From an uncultured Bacteroidales bacterium (GTDB lineage Bacteria > Bacteroidota > Bacteroidia > Bacteroidales > Bacteroidaceae): a stretch of DNA of 42,235 nt. Of the stretch, positions 24,192 to 25,440 are shown one piece after another. Under the pieces are notes generated by a model. The model did not search any database and was not told where the DNA came from. It saw only the letters and a program-made list of their open reading frames with translations. The stretch is taken from positions 1-42,235 of the forward strand of contig CACZMI010000022.1 of NCBI GenBank assembly GCA_902782245.1. The letters are read 5' to 3'. Position 1 is the first letter of the stretch. The number at the start of each line of letters is the position of its first letter. The position numbers were made by a program, and so were the translations under genes.

Positions 24192-24902
24192 ATGACTGAA
24201 TTACAGGGTCTCATAGAGACAGACAGATTGGCCACGCTGTCAATTAATGGCAGCGAATCCCTGTTCTGGGATGGGGTGGCCAATATATATACTTCAGCCA
24301 TAGTTTGGATTCCTCTTGCCCTGTTTGCTATCTTACTGTTAATCAGGAATATAAACCCTAAGAAATTATTGCTTGTATTACTGTTGGTGGCAGTCACCGT
24401 TCTTTTGTGCGACCAATTGTCATCATCGGTTTGCAAGCCGCTTTTCCATAGACTCAGACCCACACGTGATCCATATATATTAAATATGGTGGATACCGTA
24501 AACGGCTATCGTGGAGGACTTTACGGCTTTTTCTCAGGGCATGCGGCCAATTCTTTCGGTCTGGCATCGCTGTTCATGTGGCTTGTAAGAGACAGATGGT
24601 TTAGTCTGTCAGTTGGCATTTGGGCTATAATAAACTCACTGATAAGAACTTACTTAGGCGTTCACTTCGCGGGAGATATTCTTGTAGGCGCCATTGTGGG
24701 CAGTATTATCGGCAGTTTAATGTACTGGATATATTACATGACAACGCGTAAGGACCGCAGCCGTCGCAACGTTCATGATTCAAGTCTTCTTTACACAAGG
24801 ACCGGATTCATGCGCAGTGACGTGTTTGTGTTCATGTGTGTCTTGTTTGGTACTTATTCGGTAATATTTATAGGTTCCTGTATAACTCAGGGAATTGCGT
24901 GA
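24192..24902 (+). CDS. PAP2-family membrane phosphatase
   Basis: A 236-residue protein with about six membrane spans. The three PAP2 signature motifs are present: KPLFHRLRPTRDP, FFSGHAANS and RTYLGVHFAGD, whose histidines do the phosphate transfer. Such enzymes remove phosphate from lipid substrates such as undecaprenyl diphosphate, phosphatidate or lipid A; which one cannot be told. It begins 10 bp after batE, so it is probably the last gene of the bat operon, although it is not a classic bat gene. The structured element at 24907 starts just after the stop and may end the transcript. Confidence 0.87.
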   Translation: MTELQGLIETDRLATLSINGSESLFWDGVANIYTSAIVWIPLALFAILLLIRNINPKKLLLVLLLVAVTVLLCDQLSSSVCKPLFHRLRPTRDPYILNMVDTVNGYRGGLYGFFSGHAANSFGLASLFMWLVRDRWFSLSVGIWAIINSLIRTYLGVHFAGDILVGAIVGSIIGSLMYWIYYMTTRKDRSRRNVHDSSLLYTRTGFMRSDVFVFMCVLFGTYSVIFIGSCITQGIA

Positions 24903-24906
24903 GAAC

Positions 24907-24960
24907 TTTTGGAGCAGTGAGAGCCATCAAACTTGTTTGTTTGGCCGAGTCGCGACAAAA
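24907..24960 (+). repeat. Structured element, left copy, upstream of the HTH gene
   Basis: The element reads TTTTGGAGCAGTGAGA, then a palindromic core (24923-24945, arms with CAAAC/GTTTG and GCCA/TGGC), then CGAGTCGCGACAAAA. A second copy lies at 25322-25379 in opposite orientation. Both outer boxes are conserved; the cores differ in sequence but both stay self-complementary. The ends TTTTG and CAAAA can also pair. Confidence 0.8.
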
Positions 24961-24997
24961 GTCATGGAACGAAGTGACATATTTTAATATTTATAAC

Positions 24998-25005
24998 TAG
25001 ATTTG
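24998..25005 (+). promoter_or_regulatory. -7 promoter box for the HTH gene
   Basis: TAGATTTG matches TAnnTTTG and lies 24 bp before ATG 25030, downstream of the left structured element. Confidence 0.5.
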
Positions 25006-25029
25006 ATAAACTACCTAATTTTTAAGCTT

Positions 25030-25284
25030 ATGACCAGATTAATCACATTCAATGAACTGCGCCAGATCAAGGCGCAACTTCCGGAGGGCAGCATTCACAG
25101 AATTGCCGACGAGCTGAATCTTGATGTAGAGACAGTAAGAAACTTCTTTGGAGGTACAGACTACAAGCAGGGTTCAGCAGTAGGATTCCACATAGAGCCG
25201 GGACCGAACGGCGGCTGCGTTGTTCTGGATGATACGACAGTTCTGGATAGAGCTCTTGAGATTATTGCAGAATCCAAGAAGTAA
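25030..25284 (+). CDS. Small Bacteroidota DNA-binding (helix-turn-helix) protein
   Basis: An 84-residue protein. The N-terminal half reads ITFNELRQIKAQLPEGSIHR, then IADELNLDVETVRNFFG, a helix-turn-helix-like segment. The C-terminal half (GFHIEPGPNGGCVVLDD) is a short beta part that I recall from small proteins annotated as DNA-binding in Bacteroides. The target is unknown. I start at ATG 25030, the usual family start. The gene is alone, with its own promoter box and terminator, and is framed by two inverted copies of a structured element, which might be its operators, a mobile unit or regulatory RNAs. Confidence 0.8.
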   Translation: MTRLITFNELRQIKAQLPEGSIHRIADELNLDVETVRNFFGGTDYKQGSAVGFHIEPGPNGGCVVLDDTTVLDRALEIIAESKK

Positions 25285-25295
25285 GAATCAAATTT

Positions 25296-25325
25296 AAGGG
25301 CGTTAAAATAACGCCCTTGATTTTT
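25296..25325 (+). terminator. Terminator of the HTH gene
   Basis: AAGGGCGTTA and TAACGCCCTT form a perfect 10-bp stem around AAA, followed by GATTTTT. The T run is also the start of the right structured element. Confidence 0.85.
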
Positions 25326-25379
25326 GTCGCGACTCGACAATATTCAAGTAAACTTGATATTGTTCTCGCTGCTCCAAAA
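25322..25379 (-). repeat. Structured element, right copy (inverted)
   Basis: On the minus strand it reads TTTTGGAGCAGCGAGA, then a palindromic core (plus-strand 25337-25363, arms ACAATAT/ATATTGT and CAAGT/ACTTG), then CGAGTCGCGACAAAA. The outer boxes differ from the left copy by one base (C for T). The core has diverged while keeping self-complementarity. Confidence 0.8.
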
Positions 25380-25440
25380 ATTGCATAATATCTATTATGT
25401 TAAATAGGGAATATTGAAGCGCACCCCACTGTCCGATAAC

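What the first reader, a model, noticed from the sequence alone, without database searches (positions are those of the whole stretch)
24907..25379. Small HTH gene framed by two inverted copies of a structured element with changing but still paired cores
Seen: each copy has the outer boxes TTTTGGAGCAGYGAGA and CGAGTCGCGACAAAA, nearly identical between copies, around a core that differs in sequence yet is self-complementary in both. The ends (TTTTG/CAAAA) can pair, and the single box difference (C to T) keeps a pair as a wobble with G. In such a fold the conserved internal-loop bases line up as tandem G-A pairs. Conserved loop bases plus covarying stems are what a functional RNA or single-stranded DNA structure looks like. 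The two copies point away from each other's strand around one DNA-binding protein gene. Possible readings: operators of that protein, a tiny mobile unit with its own protein, or paired regulatory RNAs.
Basis: partly seen in the sequence, partly recalled or inferred. Interest (0 to 1): 0.72.

Follow-up and report, generated by a model that had tools for sequence, protein, structure and literature searches.

The report
Mobile hairpin element inserting into genes
The two hairpins beside this small gene are copies of a dispersed DNA element, found up to more than a hundred times per genome in rumen and related bacteria, that lands just after a short AA target and can sit in frame inside protein genes as an extra 23-25 amino acids.

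Summary
The two copies are real and structured, but they are not tied to the HTH gene. They belong to a dispersed hairpin family of about 69-83 nt: 33 of 37 genomes of the window's genus (E 1e-3), 31 of 295 sampled from its order (E 1e-6), and 138 matches in one genome. A unit has a 6-bp outer stem, two conserved boxes with tandem G.A mismatches, a variable hairpin and, usually, a small second hairpin. Stems covary strongly. At one double step of the outer stem, 59 of 130 copies have tandem G.A and 60 have two Watson-Crick pairs. Copies start directly 3' of (G/C)AA (133 of 172). Homologous genes show clean 75-nt filled and empty sites. Some copies sit in frame, for example in asparagine synthetase B and a GH31 enzyme. 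Only 3 of 30 HTH loci held have intact copies, and orthologues of copy B decay. No partner enzyme was found: 58 loci around Y1 transposase and reverse-transcriptase matches hold no element. It behaves like Rickettsia palindromic elements but has a different anatomy. The moving enzyme is unknown.

The parts
24906..24980 (+). Copy A, whole unit: outer stem, boxes, core hairpin, outer stem, second hairpin. The left flank GAA at 24903-24905 lies between it and the stop codon of the preceding ORF (24192-24902, PAP2-like by eye, not tested)
   Evidence: model R1 match 24904-24982 (+), E 2.7e-17
24906..24911 (+). Copy A outer stem, 5' side (CTTTTG)
   Evidence: covarying pairs
24912..24921 (+). Copy A left box GAGCAGTGAG
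   Evidence: invariant or nearly invariant columns
24922..24945 (+). Copy A variable core hairpin (24-nt class)
24946..24956 (+). Copy A right box CGAGTCGCGAC
24957..24961 (+). Copy A outer stem, 3' side (AAAAG; the last C of the box pairs with G 24911)
24964..24980 (+). Copy A second hairpin ATGGAACGAAGTGACAT (GAA loop, tandem G.A in its stem)
25319..25380 (-). Copy B unit; left flank GCAA at 25384-25381 read on -, beside a palindrome conserved in the genus; no canonical second hairpin, a terminator-like hairpin (25298-25316) stands there instead
   Evidence: model R1 match 25308-25382 (-), E 1.5e-20
25365..25374 (-). Copy B left box GAGCAGCGAG
25337..25364 (-). Copy B variable core hairpin (28-nt class)
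25326..25336 (-). Copy B right box CGAGTCGCGAC
25030..25284 (+). 84-aa HTH-like gene between the copies; conserved in related genomes, not part of the element

Best explanation
The two elements are copies of a non-autonomous, dispersed hairpin element of Bacteroidales. Shown: the unit (about 69-83 nt) is held together by structure; it lies directly 3' of (G/C)AA, mostly ends in AA, is a pure addition without loss of target bases in the two compared genes, forms head-to-tail arrays, and is found between genes and inside them, where open frames and lengths of 3n are favoured. Inferred: the strand that carries the tandem G.A pairs is exposed as single-stranded DNA (or RNA) and folds; an enzyme supplied from elsewhere recognises the folded boxes, cuts beside the AA ends and joins the unit after an AA target. 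A unit that ends in (T)CAA recreates a target, which would explain the arrays. Copies in genes survive when they keep the frame; old copies decay. The HTH gene in the window is a bystander.
For: Structure: 87.9% paired cells against 65.6% shuffled, 18 of 19 pairs with changes on both sides, covariation score 0.585 against 0.194; switch between tandem G.A and two Watson-Crick pairs in 119 of 130 rows (59 + 60). Boundary: A at -8 in 164 of 172 and at -7 in 152 of 172; GAA 90, CAA 43. Empty sites: L172 has 75 nt between GAA and TGG; L344, L347 and L348 read GAATGG there, L343 and L345 GAGTGG; L114 against L020. In proteins: E. coli AsnB has a single residue where the query has 33, BoGH31A has nothing opposite 311-337. 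Frame: 43 of 47 ORF-spanning copies have length 3n against 46 of 86 others (Fisher p 5e-6). Mobility at the HTH locus: G002 has an insertion at another point; G029 and G005 hold decayed orthologues of copy B.
Against: No mobilising enzyme was identified and no copy was seen in transit. The named carriers are mostly metagenome bins. G.U (41 cells) and A.C (33) at variable pairs are close, so DNA or RNA is not settled. Copy A alone folds no better than shuffles. Copy B lacks the second hairpin. 46 of 86 non-ORF copies are also 3n, so part of the length bias belongs to the family; the ORF set contains orthologues (five of one gene) and chance frames, so the Fisher test is too generous. The 172 copies were picked by exact boxes and include a few chance matches (by eye L137, L193, L195, L197). 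The 54 fetched units of A1 were chosen to have a recognisable second hairpin, so its perfect pairing there is circular. Four genus genomes (G010, G014, G024, G028) have no model match.
Confidence: 0.75

Rival explanations
1. REP/RAYT-type element moved by a Y1 (IS200/IS605-type) HUH transposase.
For: Hairpin with a GGAG foot, insertion 3' of a short target, an end that recreates the target, and head-to-tail arrays are what single-strand transposition could give (recalled). Y1 matches exist in 42 of 61 relatives.
Against: No element at model E 0.01 in 50 loci around Y1 matches, reaching at most about 1.5 kb to each side (30 loci, all 20 matches). Of 11 genus Y1 loci read, 9 printed a Y1-like protein and 8 of these have other repeats beside it (by eye). 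Five of 12 element-bearing genomes, among them the 138-match G333, have no Y1 match.
Confidence: 0.15
2. RNA-mediated insertion: the unit is copied from RNA by a reverse transcriptase, perhaps with the flanking 7-8 nt repeats as a by-product.
For: RNA-like motifs (tandem G.A, CTTG-type and GAA loops). Three-unit tandem repeats of period 6-10 flank 33 of 172 copies against 9 of 516 control positions.
Against: PF00078 matches in 5 of 10 element-bearing genomes, none in G333. No element near the 8 reverse-transcriptase loci. Little excess of G.U over A.C.
Confidence: 0.15
3. Operators or regulatory RNAs of the HTH gene.
For: Two copies flank this gene in G000 and also in G017.
Against: 27 of 30 HTH loci held have no intact copy; decayed orthologues in G029 and G005. 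G032 has 7 model matches (best E 3e-10) and G030 one weak match (E 4e-4) without an HTH match. Copies lie at many unrelated genes.
Confidence: 0.02
4. Conserved mRNA element (stability, processing or termination) spread for host benefit.
For: Strong structure; kept in frame in one gene at five loci.
Against: No locus-level conservation at the HTH gene in the genus; decay of orthologous copies; U and A runs are on the wrong sides for a terminator; no Rfam family in the window or in five other loci.
Confidence: 0.08

Closest known systems
Rickettsia palindromic elements (RPE)
   Same: Small palindromic repeats, dispersed, found in frame in many unrelated protein genes (PMC2229807 and PMC10969869, passages seen)
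   Different: 105-146 or about 150 bp in those passages, in Rickettsia. Here 69-83 nt, two conserved boxes with tandem G.A, a second hairpin, (G/C)AA flank, head-to-tail arrays. No RPE sequence was compared
CGTC-tagged REPs (PMC3733652; part 1 of section 4 and passages seen)
   Same: Stem-loop repeats, some inside genes, not associated with transposase genes, reported also from Bacteroidetes; two of the families correspond to RPE-6 and RPE-4
   Different: 8-9 bp stem with 4-5 nt loop, a CGTC tag not involved in pairing, mainly head-to-head dimers. Here a longer mismatched composite hairpin without that tag, and arrays are head-to-tail
GTAG REPs / REPINs with RAYT transposases
   Same: Short hairpins in many copies; the GGAG here recalls a GTAG/GGAG foot (GGAG variant recalled, not from a call)
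   Different: GGAG lies inside the pairing here; no element beside the Y1 loci tested
MITEs in the strict sense
   Same: Non-autonomous, small, dispersed
   Different: No terminal inverted repeats of the usual kind and no target duplication beyond the AA seen in the compared sites

Membership tests
Rickettsia palindromic elements | In-frame insertion in many unrelated protein genes | tested here: met
   AsnB, GH31, GNAT, one more gene family; 43 of 47 spanning copies 3n
Rickettsia palindromic elements | Sequence or structure relationship to RPE families | not tested
   No RPE sequence was fetched or compared
REP/RAYT (GTAG REPs) | RAYT gene flanked by the repeats | tested here: not met
   0 of 50 Y1 loci contain an element at model E 0.01. 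One search, two mismatches per box, gave one loose match in L222 that is not a unit by eye
REP/RAYT (GTAG REPs) | GTAG-type tetranucleotide foot outside the stem | tested here: not met
   GGAG is present but the stem continues and covaries beyond it
CGTC REPs | Terminal CGTC/TGTC/CCTC tag and a single 8-9 bp stem | tested here: not met
   Alignment A1 shows no such tag at either end and a composite stem
MITE | Terminal inverted repeats and target-site duplication | tested here: not met
   One imperfect hairpin with a second hairpin at one end; two compared filled/empty sites show no duplication beyond AA
IS200/IS605-type single-strand transposition | Y1 HUH transposase acting on the folded ends | tested here: inconclusive
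   Target and array logic fit, but 5 of 12 element-bearing genomes lack a Y1 match; activity cannot be tested here
Known Rfam RNA | Match to a covariance model | tested here: not met
   Only a tRNA in the window at the gathering scores; 0 matches up to E 0.1 in five loci

The most novel reading that the evidence does not exclude
A class of structure-defined mobile hairpins of Bacteroidales without a known transposase: one folded strand with tandem G.A motifs is the recognition unit, a short AA step is both target and end, and insertion into genes in frame is a regular outcome. It would be moved by an enzyme outside the Y1, Y2 and reverse-transcriptase families tested, and the same activity may produce the flanking 7-8 nt arrays.
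Probability: 0.3. Interest if true: 0.82.

Novelty: new variant of a known kind. Interest (0 to 1): 0.64.

Why it matters
In-frame selfish repeats in bacterial proteins are best known from Rickettsia. Here they occur in abundant, partly cultured rumen bacteria, with sharp boundaries, empty sites, genomes with more than a hundred copies and a covariance model ready for use. That makes two open questions testable: how palindromic repeats without a known transposase move, and how often they add peptide segments to proteins. The near all-or-nothing exchange between tandem G.A and Watson-Crick pairs is strong evolutionary evidence that the folded strand itself is selected. For annotation, such units explain odd 23-25 aa inserts in proteins of these bacteria.

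Tried and rejected
Operators of the HTH protein, paired regulatory RNAs and a unit with its own gene: rejected on distribution. Terminator: U and A runs on the wrong sides. Known Rfam RNA: none. Hammerhead ribozyme: considered from a recalled motif; the CTGATG side covaries with the other side of the outer stem. Integron attC: thought of from memory, not tested. Autonomous version with a gene between the boxes: a one-mismatch search for unpaired half boxes in the 342 loci held gave, judged by eye, chance matches, truncated, decayed or contig-cut copies and units with a mutated box. Recurrent neighbouring gene: ORF clustering within about 2.5 kb of the 172 copies found no shared mobility gene in the 12 clusters printed (three or more loci each); the largest were orthologues holding the same insertion. 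Y1 transposase, reverse transcriptase and Y2/IS91 (1 of 12 genomes, 2 matches; those two loci were not searched for the element) gave no partner. The AcrB-like L066 and sugar transporter L161 were compared with solved structures, but the alignments are too loose to show a clean gap. Literature: the searches listed no paper that I recognised as describing this element. PMC3733652 (part 1 of section 4 and passages), PMC10969869 and PMC2229807 (passages) were looked into; all other papers were seen in listings only. Subscription journals and bioRxiv are not in that library.

Full report
Observation. The window holds two matches to the paired boxes, at 24907-24960 on + and 25322-25379 on -, and 100 shuffles give none. 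Copy B folds better than shuffles on its own, copy A does not. In the window's own assembly (2.5 Mb, 98 contigs, 86% complete) the exact boxes occur only at these two places. The covariance model built later adds two weak hits on another contig, E about 1e-5, which I did not examine.

A dispersed family. The shorter box pattern is found at 69 places in 18 of 61 genomes (36 relatives of the genus, 24 of the order, and the own genome), all 18 in the window's genus, with 0 matches of the reversed control pattern. The virus collection gave 23 stretches, a few of them chance by their sequence. With covariance model R1 the counts are 33 of 37 genomes in the genus (E 1e-3), 31 of 295 in the order (E 1e-6), and in a sample of 395 from the phylum the own genome plus one of another order (E 1e-8). 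These tools score only a limited number of candidates per genome (129, 16 and 12 in these calls, 150), so copy counts and absences are lower bounds. Six genomes picked through loci with copies have 6 to 138 matches; G333 has 138, G334 126 and G331 106.

Anatomy. From 172 distinct copies and 55 aligned units a typical unit reads: flank (G/C)AA; outer stem 5' side of 6 nt; GAGCAGYGAG; a variable core, mostly 24 or 28 nt, that forms a hairpin; CGAGTCGCGAC; outer stem 3' side; 2 nt; a small second hairpin, with a GAA loop in 85 of 168 parsed cases; AA. A is at -8 in 164 and at -7 in 152 of 172 copies; the three flank bases are GAA in 90 and CAA in 43. Conservation fades beyond them, so the left boundary is sharp. 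A second hairpin was recognised by the stricter parse in 133 of 172.

The fold is selected. In 55 sequences 18 of 19 pairs show changes on both sides, 87.9% of cells pair against 65.6% after shuffling, and no shuffle reached the covariation score. Sliding the partners by 1-3 columns drops pairing to 28-46%. The structure was read off these same sequences, and units were chosen to have the second hairpin, so its two pairs count for little; the outer stem and the core were not selected for pairing. At the third and fourth pair of the outer stem, 59 of 130 rows have tandem G.A and 60 of 130 have two Watson-Crick pairs; 11 are mixed or gapped (that alignment was fitted to the model). The boxes add two further tandem G.A steps. 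Tandem G.A can form only on the + strand of the element; its complement would have C.T mismatches. At variable pairs G.U (41 cells) and A.C (33) are close, which gives little support for RNA over DNA; this is a weak argument.

It inserts. In one gene, which I take from recall to be a carboxymuconolactone decarboxylase/cupin fusion (no family search was run on it), five loci carry a 75-nt unit near the 3' end (L069, L111, L136, L172, L182). Homologues found read straight through: GAA|TGG in L344, L347 and L348, GAG|TGG in L343 and L345, against GAA-[75 nt]-TGG in L172; L346 gave no match to the search pattern. A GNAT gene shows the same in L114 against L020 (family). In arrays units follow each other head to tail at about 69-87 nt, often directly, as expected if a terminal (T)CAA serves as the next target.

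In-frame copies. Of 172 copies, 62 lie in an open frame with at least 40 codons before the unit and 80 outside it. Among copies with a recognisable second hairpin, 43 of 47 spanning ones have a length divisible by three against 46 of 86 others (Fisher p 5e-6). Orthologues and chance frames are in this count, so the p value is too generous. Carrier proteins with known domains include asparagine synthetase B, an AcrB-type transporter, a TPR protein, a TonB-type barrel, a sugar transporter, GH31, MsrA plus creatininase and YdcZ; L104 and L082 had no Pfam match. E. coli AsnB has one residue opposite query residues 189-221, where the unit occupies 194-218. The Bacteroides GH31 chain has nothing opposite 311-337, with the unit at 310-332. 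For the AcrB-like and sugar-transporter proteins the alignments are too loose to place a clean gap. The reading frame is not fixed: 24 of 50 best frames are + phase 0, the rest are spread over the others.

The HTH gene is a bystander. It is found in 41 of 61 genomes and has no Pfam or NCBIfam match near a cut-off. Of 30 loci held, only those of G000, G017 and G002 have intact units. G000 and G017 share both insertions; G002 has a single one at another point upstream of the gene. Copy B has orthologues in G029 and G005 that keep the neighbouring terminator-like hairpin but have lost much of the stem; the model scores the G029 copy 13.8 bits and does not report the G005 one. That is drift, not conserved function at this locus.

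What moves it. Y1 transposase matches exist in 42 of 61 relatives, but most of those read out have other repeats beside them. None of 50 Y1 loci and 8 reverse-transcriptase loci contains a unit at E 0.01. Five of 12 element-bearing genomes, including G333, have no Y1 match, and G333 has no reverse-transcriptase match either. Y2/IS91 transposase is in 1 of 12 genomes. Completeness of G331-G336 is not given, so absence is not proof. Insertion 3' of a short target with an end that recreates it resembles single-strand transposition, but membership in REP/RAYT fails and in IS200/IS605 stays open on the tested features.

Relation to known kinds. Rickettsia palindromic elements are the closest in behaviour: small, palindromic, in frame in many proteins (PMC2229807, PMC10969869, passages). 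CGTC REPs, two families of which are RPEs, lack a transposase association and occur in Bacteroidetes too (PMC3733652, section part and passages). Neither has this anatomy as described there. I found no description of this element in the searches listed under Tried and rejected.

Limits. The copy set is biased to the two exact boxes. Order-wide model hits show subfamilies with other boxes, so the family is wider than described. Nothing here shows current movement or translation of an insert.

Noticed in passing
L071, L073, L108, L158, L161, L175 and others: Three-unit tandem repeats of period 6-10 (26 of 33 with period 7, such as AATTGAA and AATCTTC; 5 with period 8) lie within about 45 nt of 33 of 172 copies against 9 of 516 control positions. 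In the genus such arrays also occur without a unit, and by eye they are read in frame in L066 and L161.
   Followed up: partly
L273-L290 (G241, G065, G171, G178, G278, G195): Related subfamilies with different box sequences but the same plan, several copies each. By eye box pairs change together, for example GC/GC to GT/AC in G241.
   Followed up: partly
L280-L282 (G065): There the hairpin sits inside a larger repeated stretch of about 380-550 nt at three places, apparently non-coding.
   Followed up: no
L222, L223, L225-L227, L231, L234, L235: RAYT-like Y1 genes of the window's genus are flanked by other repeats, such as GGGGACGGTTC or GGGGTCAGACCCC (by eye).
   Followed up: partly
L135:1182-2531: One open frame joins a peptide methionine sulfoxide reductase domain and a creatininase domain with the unit between them; possibly a gene fusion made by an insertion.
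   Followed up: no
L166 around 2570-2720: Right-half fragments of the unit repeat in tandem with short repeats between them.
   Followed up: no
window 25384-25407 and the same place in other genus genomes: A palindrome CATAATAACTATTATG (CATAATATCTATTATG in the window) followed by TTAAATAG lies between the HTH gene and the next gene in most genus loci printed, judged by eye; possibly a regulator site.
   Followed up: no
L183-L205: Units occur in contigs of the virus collection, some in open frames, which may mean carriage by phages.
   Followed up: no
window 25030-25284: The 84-aa HTH-like protein is conserved in 41 of 61 genomes yet has no Pfam or NCBIfam match near a cut-off.
   Followed up: no
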